Shown one piece after another: positions 29,316-57,413 of a DNA stretch of 64,000 nucleotides; within the stretch, counting starts at the first letter, position 1, and every line of letters starts with the position of its first letter. The stretch comes from an uncultured bacterium. GTDB taxonomy: Bacteria; Elusimicrobiota; Elusimicrobia; Elusimicrobiales; Elusimicrobiaceae. The notes beneath the pieces are model-generated. The model saw nothing but the letters and a program-made list of their open reading frames with translations, was not told where the DNA came from and made no database searches. The position numbers and the translations under genes are program-made. The stretch is taken from assembly GCA_949291365.1 (NCBI GenBank), contig CASEVJ010000003.1:1-64000 (forward strand), in the 5' to 3' direction.

Positions 29316-29343
29316 AAAAGCCCCCGGCTAAAAAGCCGGGGGC
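29316..29343 (-). terminator. terminator at the end of the Tad locus
   Basis: GCCCCCGGCT and AGCCGGGGGC close on AAAA; the minus-strand RNA continues with UUUUGUU. It lies just past the last gene of the locus. Confidence 0.9.
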
Positions 29344-29360
29344 AATACTACGAAACTTCT

Positions 29361-32300
29361 TTATCTGTTTATCTCTCCGCCACGCTGCTGTCCAGTGTAT
29401 CTTGCGGAGCTTTTCCCTTGACCGGAGCTCGTTACGGCCTGCGGTTTATATTCAAGCCCCAGTTCTATGACCCGCTGCATGTAATCCAAAGCGTCCTGGA
29501 TAGGCATGTTGCCTGTCAGCTGGTCGCATTTGCCAAATTCTTTAAACAGGATTTCACCATAGGATTTGGCATATTCGTCGCGGTAATAACCCACTTCTTT
29601 GCTAATCCCCTGCGTAGGCAAGGGCTGTATTTGTCCAGCCGTCAAAGACGCCAACGGGAAGCGGCCATTTACCTGCGCCATGCTAATAGCTTCTTTAACC
29701 GAGGGATATATGCCTCGTAAAGAAGAGGTTTTTAAGTCGCTGTAATTGCCCCAATAGTATGGGTCTTGAGCAAAGCGGACATCTTTCATCGTATCCCCGT
29801 TCACTTCTACCTTTTGGTTGGGATAATATACGGAATCTAATCCCACATAGATAGCAAACGTACCAAAGGTATTGGTCAACCCCTGGGCACGCGCACCGCC
29901 GCTGCTCATATCTCTGGAGCGCAAGGCAATGGCTCTGCCCATTTCACATACTGCGGGGCGGGGAACTTCTGTCATCCCCAAGCTGTTTTTAGCCATGTAC
30001 AAGGCATCTACAAACTCAGAGAGTCTGGGGTTCCCGGAAGCCAATGCCGTAAGATAGGGCTGGCCTTCGGGACGCACCTTGCTGTTATAGCCCTCAACTA
30101 CCTGATTGATGAACACACGCGCTTCATCAGAAGCCAAGACTGCATTGTTAAAGGAGTCCAAGTCATTTGCCTTGAACTGGGAATACAGCATCGTACCCGT
30201 AGCCGGATTCGTTTTGCCTCCCACAGTCAGCAACGCATGCTTGGTCGGATCAGTCGGAATTTCAGCCACAGAGGTAGCCAATACCGCGGCATCCATCTGT
30301 TTGTCCACATATTCCGTCACGGTAGCGGCCTGCGCAAGAGGCAAGCTGCGGGGTTCCACCGGTTCCGGAGTGACGCCTTTGGTGCCTTCGTTCTTGAACT
30401 CGCAGGTAGCGGTCTGGATCAGCTCACCGCTGCGATACAGGTTCCACTGAACCGTGCCGGGGCCGGCCACACTGCCTTTAACGCCGCCAGCCAAGATTCT
30501 GTCGTACACATAATTGATGATGTTGCCGCTGGGCTGGCCCGTCACCGTCTGTTCTGCCAGTACACTGCCCTTATTAGGATCATAAGGTGTATAGGCAGCC
30601 GTCACACGGATATTGGCCATGGCTTTGGCTCCAGTGGTTACTCTTCCGCCCTGGAAAGACGGGCCGATTTTTACAATTGCTTTAGCTACGTCGCCGTCCG
30701 TCTCCAGCGTGTCCACGCAGTCAATCTTGGTGCTGTTGTCAAAATAGCATCTGGCACCGCGCACTGTGTCTATGCCTTCCAAGCGGTGTTTGCGCTTATT
30801 AACATTCTCTTTTTTACCGCGGCGTTCAATATTGGCTTCAAACCACTGCCAATACGGCATCGGCAAATCGTTTACGTCGTATTTCACCGGATATTTGGAA
30901 GTAATAGACTCAATAAACGCCAAGTCCATCTGGGTAAATGCATGTTCCGCCAGCTTGCGGGCCGGAGAAATAGAGGAGTTACCCGTTATTTCGTCCGTCG
31001 CCAGCTTTTGATCTACCGCCAATTTGGTAAGCAGGTCAATCATGTCGGGCTTGAACGATTTTTCCCAGTTGAGCACTTCCGCTTCCGCCACATAAATGAC
31101 GCAGGCGTCATTGAGGTCTTCCGATACTACTCCGCCGGCATGAGCGCGGTTGTTATTATTGGCGGCTTTCTTCTTTTCGTTGAAATACTTGCCCGGCTCG
31201 TTCATGATGTCATTGGAAGCGTCAATGCGGCTCTGCAGGTTTTTCACCGTAGAGGTATCCCCTTTGGCTTCCGCCGCCGCTTTTTGCTCTTCCAAGGCCT
31301 CAATTTCCGCTTTGATGTCTCTTAATTCCTGCGTTTCTTTTTCAGACAAGTCGGCAATCGCCGCCACAGCCGCTGCGCTTCTGTTCTTCCACTTGAGGTC
31401 ATTGCCCCATTCGTCGCAGACATGGATACGCATCGTTTCCCCTTCCATTACAACGGGGATTTCATTGCGGGTAACAATATAATGGTACGTCTTCCATTTC
31501 AGCGCCTGGCCCGTGGGGCGTACGCTGTAGTTGTGCGTTCTGTTAAGCGCGTCGCAGCTGCCAGTACCGCCCAGCTCTAAACCAGGGTCTCCGCTGCCAT
31601 ATTTAGCGGCAGATCCGAAAATACCGTTGGACAGACAGTCAATACGCACTCCCACAAAGCCCAGGTCGCGCCCTTCTGTTCTGCCTCCGACCCATCCTTC
31701 AGAGCATTCCGGGTGGCTCTTTTTAAATCCTTTACAAGCTGCTTCATTAAAGGGCACATTGGCTCCGGCATAACCGATCCATTCAGCTTCCTTTACGCCG
31801 CAGCAGGTGGCTGCTTCCGTATGGCCGGCACGCACGCCAAAGAAATTGCCCATAGAGCAGTCATCAGAACCAGAGGCCAAGCAGCAGCCAAATCCTACGG
31901 CCAAATTGGCCAGCGCCTGCACCAACGGCTCTACCAAGTTTTTTCTCCACAGGAAATATTTCCATCTCCACGCTTCCTGGGAGCGCTCTTTCATCATATC
32001 CCACCACCAAGGAGTAATCCCTTTGTAGTCCAAGGTATGATTAATGGTCGCACCGCCGCCGCCAGGAGCAAATTCCCCGGTGCCGATACCACCCAAACGT
32101 CCGCTGCGAACCGGGGTGAACATAGCATCACTCAAGGCCTGCAGAGCGTTGGATTTGGTCATCGCATCGCGCGAAGCGCGCGCCTGGGCCGCACCACCCT
32201 GCCCATAATAAGAGCGGGACGGGCTGCCAGCTGCACGCAACGGCTGCAAAGACACGGGCTTAATGCCTTCTTTGGGAGCGCCGGCCGAATTTTCTGCAGC

Positions 32301-32912
32301 CGCCGCTTTTAACTTGGAACCACCAAAGCGGAAGCTGGTACCACCGCCGCCGCGAAGATTCATAGAAGCATCGCCCAATTCATTAATTTTGGTAGCTTGG
32401 CGCTGAAATGCCGCGCGGGTGGCCGCAGGGGCATAGGAACGCGGAGAAGACGAAGCGGAAGGTACATTAAAATTATCGTCCAATCCGTCCTGTACTCTAT
32501 AGTCAACTAACGAATCGTCCGACGCCACTTCTTCATCGTCACTTCCCCATCCTTTGATTAAACTTAACGGATCACGCCCGGTCAACTGGGCAATCTGTCC
32601 GTTCGGATCCTCCACGCTGGGGTCAAACCCAAAGCGCTCGGGATCAAAGATAGAGTCCTCCGAACCGGGAGGAATAATCGGTTCCTCATTGACGCTGCCG
32701 CTGTATTTATACAGAAACGGAAGCATAAGCAAAGCAGCCGCCGCGGCTACGAAAAAGGGCGCATCGCGTCTAGTCCGCTCAAAAAGCGTCTTTTTCGGTT
32801 TGCCGTTGCTGCCGATTTTGGAGGGCACACGTTTAGAGAACGGATTAAAAGCAGGCTTGCTGTTTTTAATCTTATCGCTGAACGTGAATGAATCCTTCTT
32901 ATTCTCAGCCAT
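29361..32912 (-). CDS. large membrane-anchored periplasmic protein of the Tad-linked cassette
   Basis: Protein of 1183 aa. A basic cytoplasmic segment of about 50 residues precedes one membrane helix (APFFVAAAAALLMLPFLYKY, about 51-70). Then comes an acidic, Gly/Ser-rich, probably disordered stretch to about 290, and large folded regions. Residues 340-460 are Cys-rich (GCC, CCG, ECS, DC pairs), 530-590 form a charged coiled coil, and the C-terminal third is mixed. No known domain is recognised. AAAAGGAG precedes the ATG. It is the last gene of a six-gene unit (39480 to 29361). Size and anchoring suggest an envelope-spanning or surface component linked to the Tad system. Confidence 0.75.
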   Translation of the reverse strand: MAENKKDSFTFSDKIKNSKPAFNPFSKRVPSKIGSNGKPKKTLFERTRRDAPFFVAAAAALLMLPFLYKYSGSVNEEPIIPPGSEDSIFDPERFGFDPSVEDPNGQIAQLTGRDPLSLIKGWGSDDEEVASDDSLVDYRVQDGLDDNFNVPSASSSPRSYAPAATRAAFQRQATKINELGDASMNLRGGGGTSFRFGGSKLKAAAAENSAGAPKEGIKPVSLQPLRAAGSPSRSYYGQGGAAQARASRDAMTKSNALQALSDAMFTPVRSGRLGGIGTGEFAPGGGGATINHTLDYKGITPWWWDMMKERSQEAWRWKYFLWRKNLVEPLVQALANLAVGFGCCLASGSDDCSMGNFFGVRAGHTEAATCCGVKEAEWIGYAGANVPFNEAACKGFKKSHPECSEGWVGGRTEGRDLGFVGVRIDCLSNGIFGSAAKYGSGDPGLELGGTGSCDALNRTHNYSVRPTGQALKWKTYHYIVTRNEIPVVMEGETMRIHVCDEWGNDLKWKNRSAAAVAAIADLSEKETQELRDIKAEIEALEEQKAAAEAKGDTSTVKNLQSRIDASNDIMNEPGKYFNEKKKAANNNNRAHAGGVVSEDLNDACVIYVAEAEVLNWEKSFKPDMIDLLTKLAVDQKLATDEITGNSSISPARKLAEHAFTQMDLAFIESITSKYPVKYDVNDLPMPYWQWFEANIERRGKKENVNKRKHRLEGIDTVRGARCYFDNSTKIDCVDTLETDGDVAKAIVKIGPSFQGGRVTTGAKAMANIRVTAAYTPYDPNKGSVLAEQTVTGQPSGNIINYVYDRILAGGVKGSVAGPGTVQWNLYRSGELIQTATCEFKNEGTKGVTPEPVEPRSLPLAQAATVTEYVDKQMDAAVLATSVAEIPTDPTKHALLTVGGKTNPATGTMLYSQFKANDLDSFNNAVLASDEARVFINQVVEGYNSKVRPEGQPYLTALASGNPRLSEFVDALYMAKNSLGMTEVPRPAVCEMGRAIALRSRDMSSGGARAQGLTNTFGTFAIYVGLDSVYYPNQKVEVNGDTMKDVRFAQDPYYWGNYSDLKTSSLRGIYPSVKEAISMAQVNGRFPLASLTAGQIQPLPTQGISKEVGYYRDEYAKSYGEILFKEFGKCDQLTGNMPIQDALDYMQRVIELGLEYKPQAVTSSGQGKSSARYTGQQRGGEINR

Positions 32913-32939
32913 AACAGTCTCCTTTTAAGATACACGTCT

Positions 32940-32953
32940 CCGGCTTTCGCCGG
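32940..32953 (-). other. intercistronic GAAA-loop hairpin
   Basis: CCGGC-GAAA-GCCGG on the minus strand, with a GNRA-type tetraloop and no U-tract, between two cassette genes. It may stabilise or process the message. Confidence 0.4.
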
Positions 32954-33008
32954 TACTGCTTGGGTCTTAACGGCCGCCCGGGCACGTTAAAACCGAATAC
33001 TGCAACTG

Positions 33009-34475
33009 CTAAATCTGTACTCCTTGCGTCTGCGGAAAGAAATCGTTCCCGCCCGGGGCTTGCCCCGCTATGGATATATTAAAACTGTCGCGCACTTCGT
33101 AATCTATGTCCCGCGTCAATTCTGCAAGCTGGCGGGTGCGCTCCGCCTTATCTTTATCAGACAAATTCTCATACCCGCTGCATATTTCATTATACGAACT
33201 TTCATAGTCGTCTAACCGCACTGTTTCACAACGGCCCAATTTGACGCTGGCCCCGCAAGTCTTTTGCATATTTAAAAAGACATCATTTACAGTACTGCAA
33301 TGGACTTTAACCATTCGCAAATCGGCACTCCACTTCCGCATGTCCTCTTTGCAGCTCTTGGGCACTTTTTGCAACGCAAGCACCAGCTTTTCCGCTTGTT
33401 CCATGTGGGGCTGTATAATCTGCTTGGCGCCGGCGGCTATTTCGCGGCATTTTTCCGCCGCACGCGCCGTTTGGGAAGCGCTCTCAAAATTAGCCGTCTT
33501 TTCCCCCCCGGCTACATATACATTTTCTATGTTTACCCCGCTGTAATCCTCTTGGGAGAGGTCTATAGCCATATAACCCGAGAGCGCGGCCTTGCGTTTA
33601 GCTACCAAATCCTGGGCTCTGTCCGCCGCGGAAGAAGCCAGCCACGTCACGGCTAAATCCCGCTGGGCCTGCTTATCCAAAGAGGACGGCCCCGCCAAAC
33701 TGCGGCTGCCGCCTGACATCTTGCGGGCGACCTCATTAATCAGGGCATTATCCTGAAAAGAGGCCTTATTCGCCGCCGCTACCAGTTGGTCTGCAGACAC
33801 CACCCCCGCTATAGACGCTTGAGGCAAAAGTGCTGCCGTATCAGAAGAACCGCCCGCGTGGGCATCTTGCGCCGCGGCACGCGCTGCCAGATCGCCGTCC
33901 GTGCCAAAATAGATTTCTTTGGCACTCTTGGCAGACTCTTCTTGCCGCGCCTGCTGGCTCCAGGTACTAATCGGACGGCTTACAGCAGACACCTCTTGCT
34001 CCGTATTCCCCTGCCATACGCCAGCCACTGCATCCGCAGGCAACCCCTGCGCCCGGCGGGAAGCGTTCACCCGGTTTACATCAAATAACCCCGACTGGGG
34101 CCCTGCTGCATTAAATCCAGGCATCTGATTTCTGTCAAAGATCGATATTTCTCCGTCCCCGGACCAGTTCCCCGGCCGGGCACGAAGCTCTGCGTCGCCA
34201 GCCCACGTCAAGAGCGTACGGCCAAAGCTCATTGACTGGGTGTCCTGCGTACTAAAACCCATCTTCCACGACAAATTACGAAGACCCGGTATCCTTCCCA
34301 CCGGTATTATAAATATAATCAAAAACAGGAAAAAAACAAGGGCCAATCCTGCCCATACATATTTTCGGTTCACCCATCTTAATACAGAATGAAAGACACC
34401 CGCGGGGAGAATGCGCTCATTCTCCCCCGGTGTCTGCAAATTCTGCCCAAGCGGTTGGTTCTTCTCCTGCTTCAT
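33009..34475 (-). CDS. membrane-anchored protein of the Tad-linked cassette
   Basis: Protein of 488 aa. A cytoplasmic tail of about 36 residues is followed by one helix (VWAGLALVFFLFLIIFIIPV) and a periplasmic part. Residues 70-290 are low-complexity and Ala/Ser/Gly/Gln-rich (GGSRSLAGPSSL near 255). Residues 330-470 are helical with six cysteines (KCREIA, SCKEDM, HCST, KTCG, GRCET, EICSG) that could pair. GGAGGGGTT precedes the ATG. The same layout (short N-in tail, one helix, disordered stalk, small C-terminal domain) recurs in its neighbours. Function unknown. Confidence 0.72.
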   Translation of the reverse strand: MKQEKNQPLGQNLQTPGENERILPAGVFHSVLRWVNRKYVWAGLALVFFLFLIIFIIPVGRIPGLRNLSWKMGFSTQDTQSMSFGRTLLTWAGDAELRARPGNWSGDGEISIFDRNQMPGFNAAGPQSGLFDVNRVNASRRAQGLPADAVAGVWQGNTEQEVSAVSRPISTWSQQARQEESAKSAKEIYFGTDGDLAARAAAQDAHAGGSSDTAALLPQASIAGVVSADQLVAAANKASFQDNALINEVARKMSGGSRSLAGPSSLDKQAQRDLAVTWLASSAADRAQDLVAKRKAALSGYMAIDLSQEDYSGVNIENVYVAGGEKTANFESASQTARAAEKCREIAAGAKQIIQPHMEQAEKLVLALQKVPKSCKEDMRKWSADLRMVKVHCSTVNDVFLNMQKTCGASVKLGRCETVRLDDYESSYNEICSGYENLSDKDKAERTRQLAELTRDIDYEVRDSFNISIAGQAPGGNDFFPQTQGVQI

Positions 34476-34490
34476 ATAACCCCTCCGGGC

Positions 34491-34754
34491 TTATTGGACG
34501 GGCTTTCCGTCGGCTCCTATGACGCGGCCCTGGTTATATTCCCGGCGCAAGCGTTCCTGTGCCATCCGCCTTTCCCACGACTGCTCCCGCTCTTGTTTTT
34601 CTTGAGCGACCCGCTGGTGGGCCATGCGGTATTCCAGTTCCCGCTGCGCTTGCTTATGCTCGGCGTGGAAATGCAAATACAACACCGCACAACACACCAG
34701 CAGTACCGCCACAATTACCTTAAACAACAGTGTTTTCATCATTTTATCAATCAT
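34491..34754 (-). CDS. small membrane-anchored coiled-coil protein
   Basis: Protein of 87 aa. One membrane helix (LFKVIVAVLLVCCAVLYLHF) is followed by a charged Arg/Glu/Gln coiled coil of about 45 residues and a short NQGRVIGADGKPVQ tail. The ATG at 34754 follows GAGG and lies 11 bases past the upstream stop. A TTG five codons earlier is less likely. Its position between two cassette genes suggests an assembly or bridging role. No family recognised. Confidence 0.65.
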   Translation of the reverse strand: MIDKMMKTLLFKVIVAVLLVCCAVLYLHFHAEHKQAQRELEYRMAHQRVAQEKQEREQSWERRMAQERLRREYNQGRVIGADGKPVQ

Positions 34755-34765
34755 AATGAAACACC

Positions 34766-36373
34766 TCAAGATTTGCCTTCGCCTTCACTGCCGCTGCCGG
34801 ATCCTGCACCGCCGTCCCCAGCAGATCCGCCCAAGTCTAAGTACTGGCCACCAAGGTCCATAGCGGCATTTGAACCTGCTCCAATAGCATAATCTTTAGC
34901 GGCAGCTCCCATTTTCTGCCAAAAGCCATTATTATTGCCTTTGTCAGCTCCTCCTTGTTCACCAATTTCCGAGCCCTCTGTACCGGTTTGTTGGTTGGCG
35001 CCTTCTTTCAGAGCTTGCGTATCCTTTTCAGGGAATTTAATATAGCTGATACCCAAAGCCACCACCATTAACGACCCCACTACTATACCGGCAATAGCCC
35101 AGCCCTGCTGCTCTTTGTATTTTTGGATATATTTGGCACAATCTGCCAAATAGAAAGCAATCAACCCCGCCATAACTAATCCGGCCGCAATAGCCCCCAG
35201 TAAGGCCCAGGTGGCATACGGGCCGCCGGCGCGGTAGGCCTTCATCAAAGCCGCAATCGTAAAACACGCCCCCACCGTGGCTAATGCCAAAGACAACATA
35301 TTCTTCATCAAGCGGCTACGGTGTTCTTGACGCTCCTGTTCCGTATTATCCACAGTATCCGCCGCTTCGGCAAAGCCCCGCTCCCGCCGTTCCATATCAT
35401 TAAGGAAATCGGAAGAACTGGTACCGGCAAAACCGGCATCCCCACCGTCCTCCAAAGCAATACCACCCGAAAGATGTTCTCTGGCCATAAACGGGCTGGT
35501 GCCTTCGTTAGCGGCGCGGTTGGCATTTGCCGCTACTTTAGAAGAAGAAACTGCGATATCCCGCAAGCTGCGCCCCTGCTGGGAGTTGGCCCCCATTCTG
35601 GAGCTGCTGTCGCGCCCGCCGGCTATAAAAGCGCTTCTGCCTCTGCCGGGCACGCCTTGCACTTCGCCATTAGAAGCAATAAGCGTCGTTCCTTTAGGCA
35701 TGGAGCCGGTCAGCGCGTAAGAGCCCATACGGGCAGCCGCTTCTCCTTTAGCAGAAGAAGAGGAACCACCTCCATACGAGGAGCCACCAAACCCGCCGTT
35801 GCTGCCAGAGCCCAGATTGCTCCCTGAAGCGCGGGCAATAGAAGCCCGCTGAAGGCCGCCGGCCTGTTCTTCGCCCAATTTATTGATTTTGGTTTGAGTA
35901 GCCGCCAAAGCCCCCGTCATGGCTGCACTATCTCCATAAGGATTAGCTGAATAGGCCGCTCCGCCGTCATAACCAATTTCCGTAGCGGCATTGGCACCCA
36001 TACCCAGACCGTCCTCGCCTGCACCCAGCGCACTGCCAAAAACAGAAGCGCTGTCCATCGCTCCGTCAAAAGCGGCCAGGGCACCGTCCCCCGCGTCAAA
36101 GATATGGCCTTCTTTAGCGGCTCTTTCTTCTGCGGTTGCAAACTGTGTAGCACCGGAAGAAATGCTAATGGTGGTATCATTAGGCAATGTACCGCCAGAA
36201 GCCAAAATTTCACTGAAAGACCGCACACGCTTTTCTTGGGCCGCCGGGCTGCTGTTCATATAGCTATATATGTTGAGCCCCAGCATGCCTACCGTAAAAG
36301 CCATGCCGGCCGTTTTACCGGCGCTTAAACTAATCGCGCCCAAACGGCTCTTTAAAAAAGCAAACAGGTTCAT
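34766..36373 (-). CDS. Gly/Ser-rich membrane protein of the Tad-linked cassette (paralogue A)
   Basis: Protein of 535 aa. An N-terminal helix with a preceding basic stretch (FLKSRLGAISLSAGKTAGMAF) leads into an Ala/Gly/Ser-rich region of about 300 residues. Motifs shared with the next gene upstream are NAATEIG near 128, ARASGSNL near 178, and NRAANEGT...LSGGI near 283 followed by SSSDF. Three hydrophobic segments (about 355-445) and an acidic Gly-rich tail end the protein. The ATG follows AGGAGG; an earlier in-frame start lacks a site. No known family is seen. The shared motifs make it a paralogue of the protein encoded at 36433-37821. Confidence 0.72.
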   Translation of the reverse strand: MNLFAFLKSRLGAISLSAGKTAGMAFTVGMLGLNIYSYMNSSPAAQEKRVRSFSEILASGGTLPNDTTISISSGATQFATAEERAAKEGHIFDAGDGALAAFDGAMDSASVFGSALGAGEDGLGMGANAATEIGYDGGAAYSANPYGDSAAMTGALAATQTKINKLGEEQAGGLQRASIARASGSNLGSGSNGGFGGSSYGGGSSSSAKGEAAARMGSYALTGSMPKGTTLIASNGEVQGVPGRGRSAFIAGGRDSSSRMGANSQQGRSLRDIAVSSSKVAANANRAANEGTSPFMAREHLSGGIALEDGGDAGFAGTSSSDFLNDMERRERGFAEAADTVDNTEQERQEHRSRLMKNMLSLALATVGACFTIAALMKAYRAGGPYATWALLGAIAAGLVMAGLIAFYLADCAKYIQKYKEQQGWAIAGIVVGSLMVVALGISYIKFPEKDTQALKEGANQQTGTEGSEIGEQGGADKGNNNGFWQKMGAAAKDYAIGAGSNAAMDLGGQYLDLGGSAGDGGAGSGSGSEGEGKS

Positions 36374-36432
36374 AACGCCTCCTAATAAAATAAACAACTT
36401 TTATGAACATCTAAAACTAATTGGTACGTGTT

Positions 36433-37821
36433 TTATTTTTGCTCTGCACCAAATACTTGATACCAAGCTTCACGGCTTTCTACTTTACCAGCCCACCAAG
36501 CTGTCCCCGTCAAGCCGCCCCAAGCGTAGTTGTAAATAGCATTGGTAATTGTCTTGGCACTCTGTGAATATGGAGCATTGGTGCTGGTCGTTTCAAATGT
36601 GCTTTCTCCCCATTGTTCTTGGAAATCACCAATTTTATCAAGCGTTTTATTATAAGGAGACCAAATCCACGCATAACACAATCCGGGCACTAGGGCCGCT
36701 GCACAAGAAATACCTACAGTACGCTGAAAATCCTCTATAGATTCCCGCAATTCTTCTTTAGATTTTTCGTAAAGTTCTATCATGTCCCCTACGCCGCTGA
36801 TACCAGCCCCCAACCCGCTCATGATGTCATCTCCGGAAAAATCTGAGGAGCTGGCCGCACCCGTGGTCAGCGTATCACCGTTCAGACGAATACCGCCGGA
36901 CAAACGTTCCGAAGCCATAAACGCTCTGGTACCTTCGTTAGCGGCACGGTCGCGGTTTTGGGTAATATCGGCCGATTGTTTTTGCAGGAAAGCCAACTGC
37001 TCTTTATTATTGCCTTCCCCCCAGGCCAAGGCCTGCCCGAAGCTGCTGGTGGATTTGCGCCCGCCGGCTAACCCAGACGTATCCGAACCGTTAGCCGCAC
37101 CGGCAATTTCCGCACCGCCCAACACGCCGGAAGAACTTACGCGGCCGCCTTCACGTCCCACTCCGCTTCCGGCTTGCAGCGGAGTAGCATTTAAATTACT
37201 GCCCGAGGCGCGGGCCATACCGGAAGCCATGCCCCACTTGCTTCCGCCGCCCTGGCCCAATGCGGCAGCGGCTGCTTTGGCAGCGTCTCCCGCTCCGGCT
37301 GCAGCGGCATCTGCCGCCGCTTTCTGCTGGGCTTGCATAGAGGCCTGCAGGGCAGCCAACTGCTGCTGCATAGAACCGACATTGGCAGAGCCGTCTATAC
37401 CTATCTCTTTAGCGGCGTTGGCGCCGTTCATGCCTAACCCACCGGTAGCACCGTCCATTTTATAAGCGGCTATTTTCTGTTCTTGCTGCACAAAAGCCGG
37501 GTCATTGGACATCTTTGCCCGGGCGGCATCGGCCTGCATTAACTGCATGTCCTTGGAAAGCGTAGCCCGAATACCGGACTGCACCTCTCCGCCGGCTCCA
37601 TAATTACCGCCGTACACGCCGTCCCCGCCGGCTCCCGCCACAAAGATTACTTCCTGGTCATTGGACGAAAACACCGTGTTCGGGCTGGGCTGGGAAGAAG
37701 ACCCCACCATTTGCCAGGTGGCTATGCCGGCCACGCCGACCGCCGCCGATAACCCCACCGCCTGCATGGCGGAAAGAGCTATTTTGCCTGCTCTGCTATG
37801 TAAAAGTTTTATGATGTTCAT
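36433..37821 (-). CDS. Gly/Ser-rich membrane protein of the Tad-linked cassette (paralogue B)
   Basis: Protein of 462 aa. A basic start and membrane helix (KIALSAMQAVGLSAAVGVAGIATW) precede an Ala/Gly/Gln-rich region. It repeats the motif order of paralogue A: NAAKEIG near 134, ARASGSNL near 201, NRDRAANEGT...LSGGI near 289, then SSSDF. The C terminus differs, with one Cys-containing hydrophobic stretch and aromatic-rich text (NYAWGGLTGTAWWAG). AGGAGC precedes the ATG. An Ala-rich heptad-like run (about 140-190) suggests a coiled coil. Function unknown. Confidence 0.72.
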   Translation of the reverse strand: MNIIKLLHSRAGKIALSAMQAVGLSAAVGVAGIATWQMVGSSSQPSPNTVFSSNDQEVIFVAGAGGDGVYGGNYGAGGEVQSGIRATLSKDMQLMQADAARAKMSNDPAFVQQEQKIAAYKMDGATGGLGMNGANAAKEIGIDGSANVGSMQQQLAALQASMQAQQKAAADAAAAGAGDAAKAAAAALGQGGGSKWGMASGMARASGSNLNATPLQAGSGVGREGGRVSSSGVLGGAEIAGAANGSDTSGLAGGRKSTSSFGQALAWGEGNNKEQLAFLQKQSADITQNRDRAANEGTRAFMASERLSGGIRLNGDTLTTGAASSSDFSGDDIMSGLGAGISGVGDMIELYEKSKEELRESIEDFQRTVGISCAAALVPGLCYAWIWSPYNKTLDKIGDFQEQWGESTFETTSTNAPYSQSAKTITNAIYNYAWGGLTGTAWWAGKVESREAWYQVFGAEQK

Positions 37822-37830
37822 AATTTGCTC

Positions 37831-39480
37831 CTAATTGCCTATCATACGCCACTCATCATTACCTACGAGTTCAAATTTTTGATTCTGCGTATTGGTAAAT
37901 GTTTTTCCATCATTATCCAATTTTCCATACATACGTACACCATTGACAGTAATACTTGGCGAGGTATCACCACCGCTTGGCTGACTGTTCCAACCGCTGC
38001 CCCACTTTGGTTGACTGTCTCTGTTGTTCCAATATTGAGCCCGGGAATTGCGACGGATCTCTTTCTTCTGGGCCCGAACGATACTCTTATTGTCCTGTTC
38101 CCAGTGTTTTTGCGTGGCTTGGTTAATTTTATTAGCTTGCTCCGCAGAAACAGACAAAGTCTGTCCCTCTTCCACTTTCCAAGAAGAATTTTCTCCGCTT
38201 TTGCGCGCAACGACATCATTTCCTCTCATCAATACGCTTGTATCTGTTTTCCCATCATCAGTTTTTCCAAAAGACAAGTCGGCCTCCTTCATAAAAGAAT
38301 CCGCATCTTTGCTACCAGACATAATGTCGTTCAAACTTTCATTAGTCATATCGCCCGATTCTAACCGGGTAAAATCTTGCTTTTGAACCCAGTCTTGATA
38401 CTCTTGAGCATTCTGATCGCGGGTGGCCTTGACTTGGGACATAGTCTCCTGCAGGGCCGTTTGGGCCATAGACAAAGCAAATTGGCCCGCCATTTTCACT
38501 AATTCTCCGGCTATTTCCTCCCAATATTTATCTTCCTCTTCTTCGGCGTTTTCCTGCCCTTGTTCTTGGGCATCGCTCAACGCGTCATCAAACAGGCCCG
38601 GATCCATACTGCTTACGGGCGCGTTGGGGTCTAAATTCAAGCCGGCTGCTTTGCTCAAGTCCACAGCGCCGCTGTCGCTTAAGAAAGCATCGCTTCCTTT
38701 TACGTTGCCGCCCATCATGGCTTTTTTGGCATTGAGCAGGCGGGCGTCTTTCTGCCCGGCGGCGGCACGGCTGCCGGCAGCCGCCTGGAACAAGGCCTTG
38801 CGGGCACTGCCGCTGCCCGGCCCCTTCTGGTTAGAGAAGACGTCTTTGCCTTTCTCTTGGCTGACAAAATTAGAAAAATCCCCAGTAGCGCCAAAAGTGC
38901 CGCTCATGCCAGAGCCGGTAGCACTGCGCAAGCTGGCGCTATTTAACGTACCTATAGAGGTGGTGCCCCCGCCGTATCCGCCGCTGCTTGCGCCGCCGTA
39001 ATATTGGCCATCATAGTATTCCGACGCATCATATTCTTCACCGGACATATCAAAATCCATGGCGTCCTCTTCCTGGCGGGCTTCTTTTTCTTCTTCAGAA
39101 TACAAGGCATTTTTCTCTACATTCTGCATATCCGGATATTTGGAAGCCAGCAAATACTGCTCCGCCTCATCAGAAGAAAAAGGCATATTGGCCAAATCAT
39201 ATCCGCGGGTTTCAAAATCATAAAAATCATCATCGCTGGCCGAGCCCATGGCAGAGCCCAACGTAAAAAGAGCTACCAGCACCACTACGGCGATAGCTCC
39301 CCATGTATAGGCCTGTTTACGATCCATATTATTCAGCTTGGCCCATGTTTTACCCAACGCGGCAAACGGGCTTTGTTTTTTATTCTGCCCGTCTTTCCCA
39401 GCAGCGGCGGCAACCGGTTTTTTTTCTTCGTTGTTCTGTTTGCCGGCGCGTACTTTGCTTTTGTTAAACAGGTTGAACAT
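37831..39480 (-). CDS. membrane-anchored first protein of the Tad-linked cassette
   Basis: Protein of 549 aa. A Lys-rich cytoplasmic segment (about 1-55) is followed by a helix (YTWGAIAVVVLVALFTLGSAMG, about 58-79). A very acidic segment follows (about 82-155, many D, E and Y), then Gly/Ser-rich text and a helical C-terminal half ending in a small domain (SITVNGVRMYGKL...). GAGG precedes the ATG. It is the first gene after the strong promoter at 39.6 kb, so probably the most highly made member. The acidic stretch could bind cations or a basic partner. No family recognised. Confidence 0.72.
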   Translation of the reverse strand: MFNLFNKSKVRAGKQNNEEKKPVAAAAGKDGQNKKQSPFAALGKTWAKLNNMDRKQAYTWGAIAVVVLVALFTLGSAMGSASDDDFYDFETRGYDLANMPFSSDEAEQYLLASKYPDMQNVEKNALYSEEEKEARQEEDAMDFDMSGEEYDASEYYDGQYYGGASSGGYGGGTTSIGTLNSASLRSATGSGMSGTFGATGDFSNFVSQEKGKDVFSNQKGPGSGSARKALFQAAAGSRAAAGQKDARLLNAKKAMMGGNVKGSDAFLSDSGAVDLSKAAGLNLDPNAPVSSMDPGLFDDALSDAQEQGQENAEEEEDKYWEEIAGELVKMAGQFALSMAQTALQETMSQVKATRDQNAQEYQDWVQKQDFTRLESGDMTNESLNDIMSGSKDADSFMKEADLSFGKTDDGKTDTSVLMRGNDVVARKSGENSSWKVEEGQTLSVSAEQANKINQATQKHWEQDNKSIVRAQKKEIRRNSRAQYWNNRDSQPKWGSGWNSQPSGGDTSPSITVNGVRMYGKLDNDGKTFTNTQNQKFELVGNDEWRMIGN

Positions 39481-39592: not shown

Positions 39593-39621
39593 AGTATAAA
39601 TGCTTTTGAAGCTTTTGTCAA
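39593..39621 (-). promoter_or_regulatory. near-consensus promoter of the Tad-linked cassette
   Basis: TTGACA, a 17-base spacer and TATACT on the minus strand. It is the best sigma-70-type promoter seen in the window and drives the unit from 39480 to 29361. Confidence 0.85.
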
Positions 39622-39636: not shown

Positions 39637-40170
39637 TCAACCTTCAGGCCGTACATACGGCAACACGCGTTCGTTGGGCCCCACATATTTAATCACTTGG
39701 AGCTGACCGCCTGTCTCGCACAAAAATGCAAACCCTTTTAAACACTTCATGTCACTTTCACAAACCTGCGATTTATTGTAATCGCATAAAAATTTAATAC
39801 GGGGTGGGCGCGTGTTCACCGTCAGCACCACGCGCGTCCAGGTGCCGGAAGTATTGAAATCCAGTTTAACGTCGCCCAAGCTTAAAAAGCGGCGCATGCC
39901 GGCATTGTTAAAGCCCAAATAATCTTCCACTTTTTTAGTAATATCTTTTTCCAAGAAACGTCTATCCCAACGCTGCAAATACGATGTGGTATGACTCTGC
40001 AGCTGGTAGCGGCGGGCCGCATAAAAACCGGCAATTTCCATTTTCTGGCTAAGCACCAAAATACCAAAAATTTTAATAATAAACAAAATAAAAATCACCA
40101 ACACCGGAAACAGCAAAACTGTTTCCGTAGTGGCCTGACCTTTACGGGAAGAAAAAATGCTGCCTATCAT
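39637..40170 (-). CDS. TadE-like pseudopilin
   Basis: Protein of 177 aa. A short positively charged start ending in RKGQATTETVLLFPV, with the conserved glutamate, is followed by a hydrophobic helix and a periplasmic domain, as in TadE. A pair of cysteines lies in each of two C-terminal loops (FLCDYNKSQVCESDMKC...LCE). Prepilin peptidase cleavage before the hydrophobic stretch is expected from the family. The ATG overlaps the upstream stop as ATGA, with AAGGTGGGG as ribosome site; an upstream reading of 14 codons is unsupported. Confidence 0.82.
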   Translation of the reverse strand: MIGSIFSSRKGQATTETVLLFPVLVIFILFIIKIFGILVLSQKMEIAGFYAARRYQLQSHTTSYLQRWDRRFLEKDITKKVEDYLGFNNAGMRRFLSLGDVKLDFNTSGTWTRVVLTVNTRPPRIKFLCDYNKSQVCESDMKCLKGFAFLCETGGQLQVIKYVGPNERVLPYVRPEG

Positions 40171-41282
40171 AACCCCACCTTTACGCTGTATTTGGGCAGC
40201 GGATTGGGCCACACGCAGTTGTTGCCGCCGCGCGGACAGCTGACAGACACACTGTTGCGCACATACGGCTGGTAACGCTGCGTTACGTTAATATTAAAAC
40301 GGTTGGCCGGCAGTGTATACTTTTGTTTCAACGTAATCCCGCGCGCCAAACGCTGCAGTTTGGAACGGCTGGAAGAATCCAAATAAGCAAACTGGAATAA
40401 TTTCTCTTCCGCGATATTAGATTCTGTAAAATCAATGGCATAGGCGCCGGAATGGCGGGTAGACCCCTGGAAGTCCGCCGTCACATAAAAGCGTAATTTT
40501 TTATAAGGCACTTCAAACGGCTTTGTAGACAAAATATACCGATCCAATGTGGCCGCCGCTTCCCGTCCGCATTCGGATTTGCGGCAGCTGCGCGTATTTA
40601 AATAATAGCTCTGGCGGAACATGCGGGAATCTTTTACTGTATCATCATACACATAAGTCTGGGAAGCGTAAATAGACCCGGTGCGGATATAAATGGTGGC
40701 ATAGTCCCGGATAGCCGGCAAAGCACCCTTGTTGGCCCCAAAGAAATAGTTATCCGCAATTTCTTTATCGGTGATAACATACATTTCCTCTTCATCAAAA
40801 GAATCCTGCGGGTCTTCCTTTGCCCAGCCCTGTCTTTTGCCCTCATAATACTTAAAGCCCCAGTCCGTAGACTCGGCCGCCGGGCGCGGATTGGCAATTG
40901 CCCCATTCGGCCCCAAAGAATAGTTCGGCCCTAACGAAGGGAAAGCTCCCGATTTATAAAAAACGTCAAAAACCGTGTACTCATTTTCATCTTCGGAGGT
41001 TTCTTTGGAAGGGAGCTGGGCGGACATCGTTTGCATAACGCGGTAAGGCAGCGGCCCGTTTACCTGTGCCACGGCGTTTAAATAACCGCTGGTCGTAGAC
41101 ATCTGGGAATAGGCCCCGTTGTCCAGGGCAAACTGCTCGCGCACTTTGCTCATGGACAATTTAGAGGTTTCAAACAGCAAATAAATCAGCAACATGAAAA
41201 TAGGCGCAAGCATAACCGCGGGCAACAATATTTGTGCCCGGCGGCTGCGAAGCGTATCCCCTATTCTGTTCATTATTTGCAT
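40167..41282 (-). CDS. TadG/TadE-like pilus assembly protein
   Basis: Protein of 371 aa. The N terminus (RSRRAQILLPAVMLAPIFML) is a TadE/TadG-type prepilin-like helix, but the residue before the hydrophobic run is Q-I-L rather than the usual T-V-E. A periplasmic domain of about 320 residues follows. It is mainly beta with a pair CRKSEC near 215 and a C-terminal SVSCPRGGNNC loop. TadG-like proteins help anchor the pilus. It starts five bases after the small Flp-like gene. Assignment rests on topology and neighbours. Confidence 0.7.
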   Translation of the reverse strand: MQIMNRIGDTLRSRRAQILLPAVMLAPIFMLLIYLLFETSKLSMSKVREQFALDNGAYSQMSTTSGYLNAVAQVNGPLPYRVMQTMSAQLPSKETSEDENEYTVFDVFYKSGAFPSLGPNYSLGPNGAIANPRPAAESTDWGFKYYEGKRQGWAKEDPQDSFDEEEMYVITDKEIADNYFFGANKGALPAIRDYATIYIRTGSIYASQTYVYDDTVKDSRMFRQSYYLNTRSCRKSECGREAAATLDRYILSTKPFEVPYKKLRFYVTADFQGSTRHSGAYAIDFTESNIAEEKLFQFAYLDSSSRSKLQRLARGITLKQKYTLPANRFNINVTQRYQPYVRNSVSVSCPRGGNNCVWPNPLPKYSVKVGL

Positions 41283-41286
41283 ACGT

Positions 41287-41463
41287 TCACCCGGTCAGCA
41301 GCTGTCCCACAAACGTAAAAAACCAACGGACAATATCCTTATGAAACGCCGTAATAAAAGCAGACAAAATGACCAATATGCTGCTAAGCATCAGCACATA
41401 TTCAATAGAGGCCTGTCCTTTCCGCTGGCGCAGCAGCCGCCATACCGCTTTTATCCGGCGCAT
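41287..41463 (-). CDS. Flp-like small pilin (58 aa)
   Basis: Small gene of 58 codons between the NarL-type regulator (stop 10 bases away) and the TadG-like gene. The product starts with a basic stretch (RLLRQRKGQ), then ASIEYVLMLSSILVILS, which is the G-x-x-x-x-E-Y signature of Flp pilins processed by prepilin peptidase. A short amphipathic tail follows. The same signature occurs in the two Flp-like proteins at 56 kb (NTIEY, TAIEY). It is likely a minor pilin of the same apparatus, co-transcribed with the regulators. Confidence 0.8.
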   Translation of the reverse strand: MRRIKAVWRLLRQRKGQASIEYVLMLSSILVILSAFITAFHKDIVRWFFTFVGQLLTG

Positions 41464-41472
41464 AGTATTTTA

Positions 41473-42156
41473 TTATTCTTCGTCCTCAAATTTCATGCCT
41501 TCCGAAGAGATAAGCCCTTTTTCAATGGCTTTGACCACCGCTTCGGTACGGCTGCTGACGCCCAGTTTATGGAAAGCGCTGTTCAAATGATTTTTAATCG
41601 TTTTGACGCTGCAGCCCAATTCTTTGGCCAGCTCTTTATTGCTCATGCCTTTTCCCAGCAAATCCATTACTTTGATTTCTGTTTTGGTCAGTGTGGCCTG
41701 GCTGGGCATACCACCTTCGCCCATACGGCGCAGCCCATGCAAAAGCTTCCCCATCAGCTGCTGCGGAATCATCAACCCTTCCGCCGTAAAAGTCTTTATG
41801 GAGTTAACCAGCTCCACTGCCGGCAGCATTTTGGACAAATAGCCGTTGGCTCCGGCCTGTATAGCGTCGAGCACGTGGGCCTCGTCTTCAAAAGAAGACA
41901 GCATAAGCACATTTACTTCCGGCACATCTGCCCGGATTTTACGCGTGGCGGCAATGCCGTCCATTTTAGGCAGCTTAATGTCCATCAGCACCACATCGGG
42001 TTTGAGCTTTTTGGCCAAGGCCACCGCTTCCAGCCCGTCGGCAGCTTCTCCCACCACTTCTATCCATTTTTCACCGGTCAGCACGTCTTTGATGCCTTCA
42101 CGGAAAAGAGTCTGGTCGTCTGCAATCAGCACTTTGACTTTTTTCTTTTTGTTCAT
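41473..42156 (-). CDS. NarL/FixJ-type response regulator
   Basis: Protein of 227 aa. The receiver domain (5-125) has KVLIADDQ, the phospho-acceptor Asp in VVLMDIKLPKMDG, and conserved Ser and Lys (MLSSFE, YLSK). The LuxR-type helix-turn-helix (about 155-212) reads LGKGMSNKELAKELG and SVKTIKNHL. It is a DNA-binding regulator controlled by phosphorylation. GGGAG precedes the ATG. Its place between two kinase genes and the small Flp gene suggests that it controls this pilus locus. Confidence 0.93.
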   Translation of the reverse strand: MNKKKKVKVLIADDQTLFREGIKDVLTGEKWIEVVGEAADGLEAVALAKKLKPDVVLMDIKLPKMDGIAATRKIRADVPEVNVLMLSSFEDEAHVLDAIQAGANGYLSKMLPAVELVNSIKTFTAEGLMIPQQLMGKLLHGLRRMGEGGMPSQATLTKTEIKVMDLLGKGMSNKELAKELGCSVKTIKNHLNSAFHKLGVSSRTEAVVKAIEKGLISSEGMKFEDEE

Positions 42157-42184
42157 GTATTCTCGCTCCCGTACTGCGTGAAAT

Positions 42185-43306
42185 TTAGTTGCCGCTTACC
42201 GGCAGAGTAAAGTTAAAGGACGCGCCTTGACCCAACCCCTGGCTTTGGGCCCAAATGCGCCCGCCGTGATTGGTCACAATATCTTTGGCAATAGACAGCC
42301 CCAACCCCAGCCGGCCCACACGGCTTTTGTCGCCCACTTGCGTAAAGCTGGTGAACAAAGCCGGCGCCTGTTCCGGGTCTATGCCGTCTCCAGAGTCCGT
42401 TACCGACACTTTAGCATTTTTTTCGTCTAGTTTGCTCACTGTTACCAATATCCGGCCGTTGTCGGGCGTGTGGCGCACGGCGTTTTCCAGTATGTTAGAA
42501 ATTACCTGGCGGATACGTTTTTCGTCGGCAAACACCGGTATTTCCCCCACACTTTCAAATGTTACGCTAATGCCTCTTTTGCCGGCTTTGTCTTTAAAAA
42601 TTTCCGCCGTCTTTTTCATGCTGGCCGTAAGTTCAAAATTAGATTTTTCAATACGCAGCTTGCCCTTTTCAATGGCGGCCCAGTCCACCAGGTCTTTAAT
42701 CAAATGCTCAATCTGGCCGATGCTTTCGTCCATGTAAGACATTTTTTTGGCTTGGTCTTCGTCCGGCGTCATCTTCTTTTTAAGCATATCAAAACTCATT
42801 TTCAGCGTCATCAGTGAATTGGACAAGTCGTGCGATACAATAGAGAAAAACTTGGATTTCATGTTGTTAAGCCGATCCAAATCCGCGTTGCGCGCTTTGA
42901 GCTGAGCCAATAATTCCCGGTTGCTTCTTTCTAGGAAATATTTATCTAGCGCGCGGTTGATGGTACGCTTCAAATAGTCAAAATCCACCGGTTTAATTAA
43001 GAAATCGTATACCGACTCCTTCATCGCTTCCATAATGGAATTGAGCGAAGCGTAGGCCGTAATCATCAAAATCTGGCTGTCTTGGTTAAAAGAACGGATT
43101 TTGCGGATTAAGTCCAGCCCGGTTTCATCGGGCAGATTATAATCCATTAAAATCACGTTAAAAAACTCCGTAGACACCAAGTCCAGGCATTCTTTTCCGT
43201 CTCCGGCCTGGTACACTTTATACCCTTCTATTTCCAACAAGTCCGCCAGTGTCTCGCGCAGGTTATTGTCGTCGTCCACGACTAAAATTTTTACTTGCTT
43301 ATCCAT
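42185..43306 (-). CDS. REC-histidine kinase hybrid
   Basis: Protein of 373 aa. An N-terminal receiver (5-120, ILVVDDD, NVILMDYNLPDETG, PVDFDYL) is followed by HisKA with FFSIVSHDLSNS (phospho-His) and HATPase_c with NILENAVRHTPD (N box), DSGDGI (G1) and GLGLSIAKDI (G2). This order suits a phosphorelay intermediate that takes phosphate from another kinase or senses through its receiver. There is no membrane segment. The ATG at 43306 overlaps the end of the upstream kinase by 8 bases, with CCGGAG as ribosome site. Confidence 0.92.
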   Translation of the reverse strand: MDKQVKILVVDDDNNLRETLADLLEIEGYKVYQAGDGKECLDLVSTEFFNVILMDYNLPDETGLDLIRKIRSFNQDSQILMITAYASLNSIMEAMKESVYDFLIKPVDFDYLKRTINRALDKYFLERSNRELLAQLKARNADLDRLNNMKSKFFSIVSHDLSNSLMTLKMSFDMLKKKMTPDEDQAKKMSYMDESIGQIEHLIKDLVDWAAIEKGKLRIEKSNFELTASMKKTAEIFKDKAGKRGISVTFESVGEIPVFADEKRIRQVISNILENAVRHTPDNGRILVTVSKLDEKNAKVSVTDSGDGIDPEQAPALFTSFTQVGDKSRVGRLGLGLSIAKDIVTNHGGRIWAQSQGLGQGASFNFTLPVSGN

Positions 43307-45185
43307 ATTTTGTATCTCCGGTTTTGCGGTATATCCGCAAATAAATTGCAAAAACGGCCCCCGGCCCTTCTTTCCGATTATATATAAACAGTTTCCCTTT
43401 ATGGCGGCTGATGGCTTTGCGCACTACAGCCAACCCCAGCCCCGTACCGCGGGCTTTGGTGGTAAAGAAAGGCGAAAATATTTTTTCTTTCAGCTCTTCG
43501 GCAATGCCGGGGCCTTCATCGGCAATATAAATACAAACGGCCTTTTTGCCTACTTTGCTCCCCACGGTAACCGTGCCTTGCTGAGTGGTGGCTTCGCAGG
43601 CATTGGAAATTAAATTGCGTATGGCCTGTTTGATTTCTTCCGCGTCCACTTTCAGGCGCACGCTCTCCACGTCCAGCGCTTCCTGTATTTTGATATGGCA
43701 GGGCGCCGGAAAAGAGAGCACTATATCATGCAAATAACTATTCAAATCTATCACGCTTAAAATCATTTCCCGACTGCGCGCAAAGCCAAGCACTTCGCTA
43801 ATGATACTGTTGGCCTGTTTGATTTCAGATTCAATAATAGAAAATTGTTTAATTAGTTTGGGATTGGAAGGCGGTTCAATGGTCTTAATTAAGCGTGTGG
43901 CATTGCTGATAACCGCCAGCGGATTGCGTATTTCGTGGCTGATAATAGACGCCATCTGCCCTATGGCCGCCAACCGCTCTGATTTTACCAGCTCGTCAGT
44001 AGCGGCTTTCAATTCCGCCGTACGCTCCTGCACACGCAGTTCCAAATCCTTATTCATGGCAGCCAGCTCCTGCTGGGCAGCCAAAATAGTGTCTTTGCGT
44101 TCCTGCAGCACGGCAGCCATGTGCAAAAACACACGCGCCAACTGACCGATTTCATTGTTGGGTATTAACAAATCTTTTTCCGTGGGCATATAGTCGTCGC
44201 GCTCTTCCAACTTTACGGCGGCTTCCTGCAAGCGGCGCACCGGGCGCACAATAGGAATTAATACCAAATACGCCACCAGCACAATAAATACCATCATAGC
44301 CAGCAGAATGAGCACCACATCCCACACAGAATGAAACGTGCTTTCCAAAAACAGTTTCCGTATTGTATTAGCCGGCTGGCGCACAAATACAGTCCAATTG
44401 AGTACCGGCACCTCTGCTCGGCTGACTAAAAGAGATTTTCCGTCCTCTCCATGCACCAGGCCGCCGCTTTTTCCCTGCAGTTGCACCCCCCAGGAGCGCA
44501 CTTCATAGCGAAGCGGATTGTCGGCCGTTAAGGCCAGCCCTCCCTCCGCCCCGGAGTAAGAAATCAAATTGCCGTCCGCACTGACCACCGCCACAAACAT
44601 ATCCTGCGGATAAATCCTTTCCAGCACAGAGCCCAGGCCGCCCAAATCCATTTCCGCCACCAGCACGCCTACAGTTTGCACATCTTTTAAGTGCTCCCGC
44701 AACGGAAACGCCATCAGCGCATACAAATGCCCGTTGCTGCGGTTAATAGAGCCCACATAGGCCTTGCCTTCTTTAATGCAGCTGCGCAGGATATTGCCCA
44801 GTTCCGACGCATAACTAAAGCGGCTGCTGTCGTTGCTGGAATAAAACAACAAACGTCCGTTGGGATTTAAGACCGATATATGGGTGATTTCCGGATTTTT
44901 TTGGCGCAGGTAGTCAATATCTTCTTTATTGATAAAAGGATGACCGCCAAAATCGGTATGCAAATCAGTAAATACATCAAAAAACTGCGCTTTTCGGCTT
45001 ACTTCTTCCGACACTACGGACGCTATTTGGGAAACGACCGTACGCTGTCTGTCCAAAATTTCTTTTTGCAGAACCCGGCTGTCCACCCGCAATACATGCC
45101 AGCCAATCATAATTACCGGCACGGTGGACACGATACTTAACACCCAAATGGCCTTGGAAAACAATCTGCCTGTTTTATTTTTCAC
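43299..45185 (-). CDS. membrane sensor histidine kinase (Cache-HAMP-kinase)
   Basis: Protein of 628 aa starting at a GTG with CAGGGG five bases upstream. Two membrane helices (about 10-30 and 290-315) flank a periplasmic Cache-like sensor domain. A HAMP linker (VRPVRRLQEAAVKL) follows, then a coiled coil, then HisKA (MASIISHEIRNPLAVI) and HATPase_c (NLISNACEA, DEGPGI, GTGLGLAVVRKA). It is the classic NtrB/AtoS-like layout. The frame extends upstream into the preceding gene without a start signal. It is the probable input of the cascade formed with the next two genes. Confidence 0.92.
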   Translation of the reverse strand: MKNKTGRLFSKAIWVLSIVSTVPVIMIGWHVLRVDSRVLQKEILDRQRTVVSQIASVVSEEVSRKAQFFDVFTDLHTDFGGHPFINKEDIDYLRQKNPEITHISVLNPNGRLLFYSSNDSSRFSYASELGNILRSCIKEGKAYVGSINRSNGHLYALMAFPLREHLKDVQTVGVLVAEMDLGGLGSVLERIYPQDMFVAVVSADGNLISYSGAEGGLALTADNPLRYEVRSWGVQLQGKSGGLVHGEDGKSLLVSRAEVPVLNWTVFVRQPANTIRKLFLESTFHSVWDVVLILLAMMVFIVLVAYLVLIPIVRPVRRLQEAAVKLEERDDYMPTEKDLLIPNNEIGQLARVFLHMAAVLQERKDTILAAQQELAAMNKDLELRVQERTAELKAATDELVKSERLAAIGQMASIISHEIRNPLAVISNATRLIKTIEPPSNPKLIKQFSIIESEIKQANSIISEVLGFARSREMILSVIDLNSYLHDIVLSFPAPCHIKIQEALDVESVRLKVDAEEIKQAIRNLISNACEATTQQGTVTVGSKVGKKAVCIYIADEGPGIAEELKEKIFSPFFTTKARGTGLGLAVVRKAISRHKGKLFIYNRKEGPGAVFAIYLRIYRKTGDTKYG

Positions 45186-45214
45186 ACAAACCCCTGAAAG
45201 TATCGCCGGAATAT

Positions 45215-45252
45215 TCTTTAAAAGCGGGGGCCCGGTATTCCCAAGCCCCCGC
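45215..45252 (-). terminator. hairpin between Tad unit 1 and the sensor kinase gene
   Basis: GCGGGGGC and GCCCCCGC pair around 13 bases; the minus-strand RNA continues UUUUAAAG. This is a terminator or attenuator separating the structural Tad genes from the regulators. Confidence 0.7.
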
Positions 45253-45276
45253 CGGTAGTATTTAGAAAAACATCTG

Positions 45277-46224: not shown

Positions 46225-46250
46225 CCCAAGCATCTCCTGTATTTTTAAAT

Positions 46251-49039: not shown

Positions 49040-49050
49040 AAATTATCCTC

Positions 49051-49941: not shown

Positions 49942-49945
49942 ACGC

Positions 49946-51571: not shown

Positions 51572-51585
51572 AATCAATATACCGT

Positions 51586-53871
<2,286 letters not shown>

Positions 53872-53877
53872 AGCCAA

Positions 53878-54612: not shown

Positions 54613-54627
54613 ATGTATCATTCCTGT

Positions 54628-57403: not shown

Positions 57404-57413
57404 AAATTCCTAA

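What the first reader, a model, noticed from the sequence alone, without database searches (positions are those of the whole stretch)
29361..39480. Six-gene cassette of large anchored Gly/Ser-rich proteins attached to a Tad locus
Six consecutive genes encode proteins with a short cytoplasmic tail, an N-terminal helix and, in most of them, a long low-complexity periplasmic region (1183, 488, 87, 535, 462 and 549 aa). None resembles a known Tad component or any family I recognise. They share one strong promoter and one terminator, so they form a dedicated unit. Shared topology with divergent sequence suggests an envelope-spanning assembly or secreted matrix built by, or with, the Tad machine. 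The role is inference.
Basis: partly seen in the sequence, partly recalled or inferred. Interest (0 to 1): 0.8.

Follow-up and report, generated by a model that had tools for sequence, protein, structure and literature searches.

The report
Tad-linked anchored proteins with swappable heads
Six undescribed membrane-anchored proteins next to a pilus locus in a gut bacterium turn out to be one version of a gene block kept across a whole class of Elusimicrobiota, and its largest protein keeps its anchor while swapping its outer part between species, as surface-display systems do.

Summary
Six minus-strand ORFs (1183, 488, 87, 535, 462, 549 aa) follow the tad genes. A promoter upstream of the block recurs in 35 of 37 relatives, and a terminator closes it. 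The genome is an animal-gut Elusimicrobiaceae (Candidatus Avelusimicrobium group). No Pfam, NCBIfam, PHROGs or PDB sequence family fits convincingly.

New here:
1. At least four of the six are paralogues sharing an N-terminal 'stem'.
2. The block is not a genus speciality. Counterparts in the same order exist in most families of the class that have tad. In f14/f15 the block directly follows tad; in f2 it is complete but elsewhere in the genome. c1183-type genes are in 192 of 341 phylum genomes, the tad gene g371 in 201, both in 181.
3. c1183 has a conserved stem (1-~345) and an exchanged head. Two species with 94% identical stems (86% DNA) share no detectable head DNA, while flanking DNA is 81-88% identical.

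None of the six carries a class III prepilin motif before its helix, so they are not Tad pilins by that test. Best explanation: anchored stem-head proteins that work with the Tad machine and display variable domains. Co-occurrence supports the link; the role is inferred.

The parts
29361..32912 (-). c1183: N-in anchored stem (TM 46-70, disordered to about 345) plus folded, species-variable head (about 345-1183)
   Evidence: ORF; AF2; stem/head conservation and swap; class-wide homologues
33009..34475 (-). c488: N-terminal TM helix, low-complexity middle, C-terminal helical bundle with six invariant cysteines
   Evidence: Alignment A5; AF2 pLDDT about 90 for 340-460; HMM match to f2 counterparts
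34491..34754 (-). c87: small single-TM coiled-coil protein, travels with c535
   Evidence: c535-c87 tandem duplication in L029
34766..36373 (-). c535: Gly/Ser/Ala-rich stem protein with weak N-terminal helix and three C-terminal TM segments; paralogue of c462
   Evidence: hhalign 100% with c462
36433..37821 (-). c462: Gly/Ser/Ala-rich stem protein, paralogue of c535
37831..39480 (-). c549: anchored stem protein, first gene of the block; stem paralogous to c1183
   Evidence: hhalign 94.5% with c1183 stem; c549 profile also hits c1183 stems
39593..39621 (-). Promoter TTGACA-17-TATACT upstream of the block
   Evidence: conserved in 35 of 37 relatives
29320..29343 (-). Intrinsic terminator after c1183
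39637..40170 (-). TadE-like minor pilin (tadE191) with class III motif GQATTE
   Evidence: Pfam TadE E 7e-4, just below cut-off; motif
40167..41282 (-). g371, TadG-like position; marker of the tad locus through the phylum
   Evidence: 201 of 341 phylum genomes; TadG-like by position and N-terminus only
41287..41463 (-). Flp-like small pilin 3
   Evidence: Class III signal PF04021 above cut-off
41473..46233 (-). Response regulator, hybrid RR-kinase, dCache kinase and thioredoxin-like (MSQCPYG) genes of the tad locus
47681..55386 (-). TPR protein, TadC, TadB, TadA (with fused MinD/ParA-type domain), RcpA secretin, RcpC
   Evidence: Pfam
55445..55933 (-). TadE187
   Evidence: Pfam TadE 9e-12
55956..56183 (-). 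Flp-like small pilin 2
   Evidence: GQNTIEY motif; weak Flp1_like
56207..56401 (-). Flp-like small pilin 1
   Evidence: GQTAIEY motif
56438..62750 (-). PorV-family outer-membrane protein (g321) and 1778-aa Cys-rich protein with FlgD-type Ig domains (g1778)
   Evidence: NCBIfam PorV_fam 90.9 bits, cut-off 90; PF13860

Best explanation
The six genes are the Avelusimicrobium version of a class-wide Elusimicrobia block encoding a set of inner-membrane-anchored 'stem-head' proteins that work with the Tad pilus machine. Each large protein has a basic cytoplasmic tail, a membrane helix and a long, mostly disordered Gly/Ser/Ala-rich stem; c1183 and c488 end in folded, Cys-rich domains. I propose that the stems span the periplasm, bind each other or the Tad complex through their conserved motifs, and present the heads at or beyond the outer membrane, where the head of c1183 is exchanged between species because it contacts host, prey, phage or neighbours. 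Shown: anatomy, paralogy of stems, conserved order and promoter, genome-level co-occurrence with tad, head exchange in an otherwise collinear gene. Inferred: assembly into one complex, physical coupling to Tad, surface exposure, adhesive or receptor role.
For: Order tadE-c549-c462-c535-c87-c488-c1183 conserved across the genus; promoter conserved in 35 of 37. Counterparts in the same order after tadE and an FtsH-like gene in f14/f15, complete in f2, beside tad in basal f1 genus g14 (L212). Profile-profile matches peak at the positional counterpart for c1183 (96.6%, E 6e-10), c549 (48%), c535 (36%) and c488 (29%), with weaker reversed controls; direct HMM hits of c488 to f2 genes down to 6e-8. 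c1183-type genes 192/341, g371 201/341, both 181, neither 129; odds ratio 106. Stem/head: L047 versus L042 stem 94% identical, head BLAST score 8% of self; no head DNA similarity over 2.6 kb between flanks at 86% and 81-88%. Head predicted folded with beta-sandwich parts, stem disordered. A thioredoxin-like CPYG protein is encoded in the tad locus, fitting the Cys-rich heads.
Against: The block is unlinked from tad in f2, in G112 and in part of g15. Co-occurrence follows a few clades and is not independent evidence per genome. No signal shows that heads cross the outer membrane; a hypervariable domain could in principle be periplasmic. c535/c462 topology is uncertain. Except for c1183, the remote matches are individually weak, the c535 reversed control is not far below its match (score 33 versus 41), and the sequences are low-complexity.
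Confidence: 0.45

Rival explanations
1. Periplasmic scaffold: the proteins form an internal lattice that positions or stabilises the Tad basal body (and perhaps other envelope machines); heads stay in the periplasm.
For: Anchored, disordered stems with conserved motifs; many paralogues in one unit; an FtsH-like protease gene in the same locus in other families; block can be unlinked from tad.
Against: Modular exchange of the c1183 head with conserved stem is typical of exposed parts, not of internal scaffolds.
Confidence: 0.25
2. Tad tip or secreted substrates: the proteins act like variable minor-pilin tips or are exported by the Tad machine, as the KilLMN tips of Myxococcus (PMC12075869).
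For: Known Tad tips carry variable domains with predicted disulphides (PMC12075869); heads here vary and are Cys-rich; adjacency to tadE and the TadG-like gene.
Against: None of the six has the class III prepilin motif before its helix, whereas the three Flp-like ORFs and both TadE of the same locus do; AF2 shows no pilin fold after the TM helix of c1183 or c488; cytoplasmic tails are long. TadE and g371 already fill the tip slot.
Confidence: 0.15
3. Independent envelope apparatus unrelated to Tad: the block only shares a chromosomal neighbourhood and a common clade history with tad.
For: Complete and unlinked in f2; 11 genomes with c1183-type genes and no g371 hit.
Against: Repeated adjacency in f14, f15, g14, g1 and part of g15; most genomes lacking one of the two are incomplete MAGs; odds ratio 106.
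Confidence: 0.12

Closest known systems
Tad (type IVc) pilus system
   Same: The locus upstream is a full Tad set: TadA, TadB, TadC, RcpA, RcpC, TPR protein, two TadE, three Flp-like pilins, and a prepilin peptidase elsewhere in the genome. Tad systems in Elusimicrobia were already reported (PMC6668835).
   Different: The six cassette families are not Tad components in any library searched and have no class III signal.
Kil pilus 'tips' of Myxococcus xanthus (TadEFG-like KilLMN)
   Same: Variable, disulphide-containing domains linked to a Tad machine; several paralogous sets (PMC12075869).
   Different: Kil tips are minor pilins with a prepilin cleavage site and a pilin fold; cassette proteins lack the prepilin motif and have long disordered stems.
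VirB10/TonB-type envelope-spanning proteins (from general knowledge)
   Same: Cytoplasmic tail, one TM helix, long flexible periplasmic linker, terminal folded domain.
   Different: Linker is Gly/Ser/Ala-rich rather than Pro-rich, no Pfam match, and heads are swapped between species.

Membership tests
Tad pilus locus (upstream genes) | Core ATPase TadA, platform TadB/TadC, secretin RcpA, RcpC/CpaB | tested here: met
   Pfam T2SSE, T2SSF twice, Secretin, RcpC
Tad pilus locus (upstream genes) | Flp-type pilins with class III signal and a prepilin peptidase | tested here: met
   Three GQxxxE ORFs, one over the PF04021 cut-off; peptidase A24 elsewhere in genome; PF04964 itself finds none
Tad minor pilin / tip (TadE, TadF, TadG, KilLMN) for the six cassette genes | Class III prepilin motif G-x4-E before the helix | tested here: not met
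   Absent before the helix in all six (the one pattern match, c1183 residue 72, lies after its helix); present in TadE and Flp of the same locus; also absent in the TadG-like g371
Tad minor pilin / tip (TadE, TadF, TadG, KilLMN) for the six cassette genes | Pilin fold after the alpha1 helix | tested here: not met
   AF2 of c1183 and c488: TM helix followed by disordered stem; moderate overall confidence; the other four were not modelled
Tad minor pilin / tip (TadE, TadF, TadG, KilLMN) for the six cassette genes | Pfam TadE or TadG-like domain | tested here: not met
   No TadE/TadG match for the six even at E 1
VirB10/TonB-type spanning proteins | Sequence family match (TrbI/VirB10, TonB_C) | tested here: not met
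   No Pfam match in 34 c1183 homologues
Phage or mobile-element module | Relatives in viral contigs or PHROGs | tested here: not met
   No relative of c1183 in IMG/VR; PHROGs only weak spanin-like coiled-coil match for c87
Class-wide Elusimicrobia cassette described here | Ordered set c549, c462/c535, c488, c1183 with homologous stems | tested here: met
   Synteny in f2, f14, f15 and (rearranged) g14 and positional homology

The most novel reading that the evidence does not exclude
The block encodes a previously undescribed envelope-spanning display apparatus of class Elusimicrobia, built from paralogous inner-membrane stems that carry exchangeable surface heads and are coupled to, but not part of, the Tad pilus.
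Probability: 0.35. Interest if true: 0.8.

Novelty: new variant of a known kind. Interest (0 to 1): 0.62.

Why it matters
Tad pili are widespread, and how they are specialised is only beginning to be understood. A large, ordered, unannotated gene block kept with Tad across a class of poorly studied bacteria, with a clean anchor/head split and natural head swaps, gives a concrete handle on what Elusimicrobiota use this machine for. If the heads are exposed, they are the likely point of contact with host, prey or phage. One cultivated species (E. minutum, probably genome G112) appears to carry relatives of at least c1183, c549 and c535.

Tried and rejected
Phage origin: no viral-contig or informative PHROGs relatives. 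Type IV secretion pilin for the c535 C-terminus: only a sub-threshold Pfam match, E 0.32. 'No Flp pilin' (from PF04964): rejected, three Flp-like ORFs are in the window. 'Genus-restricted block': rejected by the class-wide survey. Fold comparison: c488 has no PDB match better than E 0.58; the c1183 head matches only generic Ig-like beta sandwiches with low TM-scores (NF-kB p50, CrdA, S-layer domains), which I do not read as function. Direct homology of c462 to the y462 family was not shown. Literature searches found no description of the block; the held library lacks many subscription papers.

Full report
WHAT IS THERE. The six ORFs exist as described, on the minus strand, with ATG starts and short gaps. 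The block begins with a near-perfect sigma-70-type promoter and ends with a strong hairpin terminator. The promoter sequence TTGACA-17-TATACT, or one base off it, recurs at the same place in 35 of 37 relatives. I call the genes c549, c462, c535, c87, c488 and c1183, in order of transcription. Upstream lies a Tad locus: TadA fused to a MinD/ParA-type domain, TadB, TadC, RcpA, RcpC, a TPR protein, two TadE proteins, kinases and regulators. Three small Flp-like pilins with class III motifs, missed by PF04964, are also present, and a prepilin peptidase lies elsewhere in the genome.

WHOSE GENOME. All 71 loci related to c1183 in one scan of 84,980 prokaryote genomes belong to records labelled Elusimicrobiales, Elusimicrobiaceae, Elusimicrobium or Candidatus Avelusimicrobium, or to unlabelled gut bacteria of the same set. 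No relative is in the viral collection.

ARCHITECTURE. In the c1183 alignment the first 330-345 residues are strongly conserved and the rest is not. AlphaFold predicts one membrane helix (46-70), a disordered stem, and a folded head with beta-sandwich and helical parts (mean pLDDT 64, so details are uncertain). c488 has a membrane helix and a confidently predicted C-terminal helical bundle with six invariant cysteines. c535 and c462 have extra C-terminal membrane segments.

PARALOGY. Profile-profile comparison links c462 to c535 (100%), the c549 stem to the c1183 stem (94.5%), and c549 to c535 (86%); reversed profiles give at most 2% for these three pairs. Independently, the c549 profile hits c1183 stems in several genomes at E 1e-5 to 1e-2. 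So the shared topology reflects duplication of a common stem, at least for these four. c488 aligns in register but not significantly.

HEAD EXCHANGE. Among 71 pairs of c1183 proteins with stems more than 75% identical, 23 have head similarity below 20% of self-score. In L047 against L042 the stems are 94% identical. At DNA level the stem matches at 86%, the next 2.6 kb (the head) has no match, and the downstream flank matches at 81-88%. Identity falls between residues 300 and 420. This points to replacement of the head within a collinear gene. I did not test for positive selection.

DISTRIBUTION. In genus g1 the block followed g371-tadE wherever that side of the block was on the contig. In other f1 genera the picture is mixed: beside tad in L102, L103, L105, L106 and L164; intact but elsewhere in L104, L110 and L112; c1183 alone in L101 and L107-L109. 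G112, a single 1,643,562-bp contig that by size I take to be E. minutum Pei191 (from memory), has c1183 near 646 kb, c549 with a c535-like gene near 711 kb, and the tad gene g371 near 1291 kb.

BEYOND THE FAMILY. Tad loci of families f14 and f15 are followed by an FtsH-like protease gene and then by an ordered row of Gly/Ser/Ala-rich anchored proteins: y549, two to four y462-type, y488, y1183. In f2 the same row is complete but lies in another part of the genome, near dnaX-like and metallo-beta-lactamase-like genes (these neighbours identified by eye only). In the basal f1 genus g14 a rearranged row sits beside tad (L212). Comparing c-profiles with y-profiles, four families (c1183, c549, c535, c488) score best against their positional counterpart: 96.6% with E 6e-10 for c1183, and 48, 36 and 29% for the others, against lower reversed or shuffled controls; c462 does not match. 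The c488 profile hits f2 counterparts directly, down to E 6e-8.

CO-OCCURRENCE. Of 341 phylum genomes, 80 have the c1183 type, 112 the y1183 type, with no overlap in the listed genomes, and 201 have g371. By my count from these lists 181 have both kinds of gene, 11 the cassette gene only, 20 g371 only and 129 neither; odds ratio 106. These genomes are related, so the P value is not meaningful as a test; the pattern at family level is that all seven families with the block also have tad.

INTERPRETATION. The proteins are not Tad pilins by the class III motif or, for c1183 and c488, by fold. I favour inner-membrane stems that cooperate with Tad and present heads outward, because the c1183 head is the part that is exchanged. 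The published tips of the Myxococcus Kil pilus (PMC12075869) show that variable domains on a Tad machine are plausible, but those are processed minor pilins. Coupling to Tad and surface exposure are inference. A periplasmic scaffold is the main rival.

LIMITS. Many genomes are MAGs; family labels f1 to f15 are the tool's own; alignments and ORF calls behind searches were made by my scripts; low-complexity sequence weakens remote-homology statistics. No expression, localisation or functional data exist here. Whether the y-type block occurs outside Elusimicrobiota was not tested.

Noticed in passing
window 55956-56183, 56207-56401, 41287-41463 (minus): Three Flp-like small pilins with class III motifs are not found by the Pfam Flp model; annotation pipelines probably miss them in this phylum.
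   Followed up: partly
window 56438-62750 (minus): A PorV-family outer-membrane protein and a 1778-aa protein with FlgD-type Ig domains and 40 cysteines precede the tad genes; recalls type IX secretion pairs, although T9SS core genes were not sought.
   Followed up: no
L178, L189, L196, L200, L201, L203: Tad loci of f14/f15 carry an FtsH-like M41 protease gene right after tadE, absent from that position in the window and its genus relatives.
   Followed up: partly
L029 7778-11325: Tandem duplication of the c535-c87 pair, suggesting that the two form a functional pair.
   Followed up: no
L200 13068-18321: Two c1183-type (y1183) genes in tandem in one genome.
   Followed up: no
window 45277-46233 (minus): Thioredoxin-like protein with MSQCPYG motif inside the tad locus, possibly for disulphide formation in the Cys-rich proteins.
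   Followed up: no
window 3997-5595 (minus): 532-aa ORF without Pfam match in a low-GC patch (0.375 against about 0.5 around it).
   Followed up: partly
window 51586-53877 (minus): TadA ATPase carries an N-terminal MinD/ParA-type domain, which looks like a TadZ-TadA fusion.
   Followed up: no
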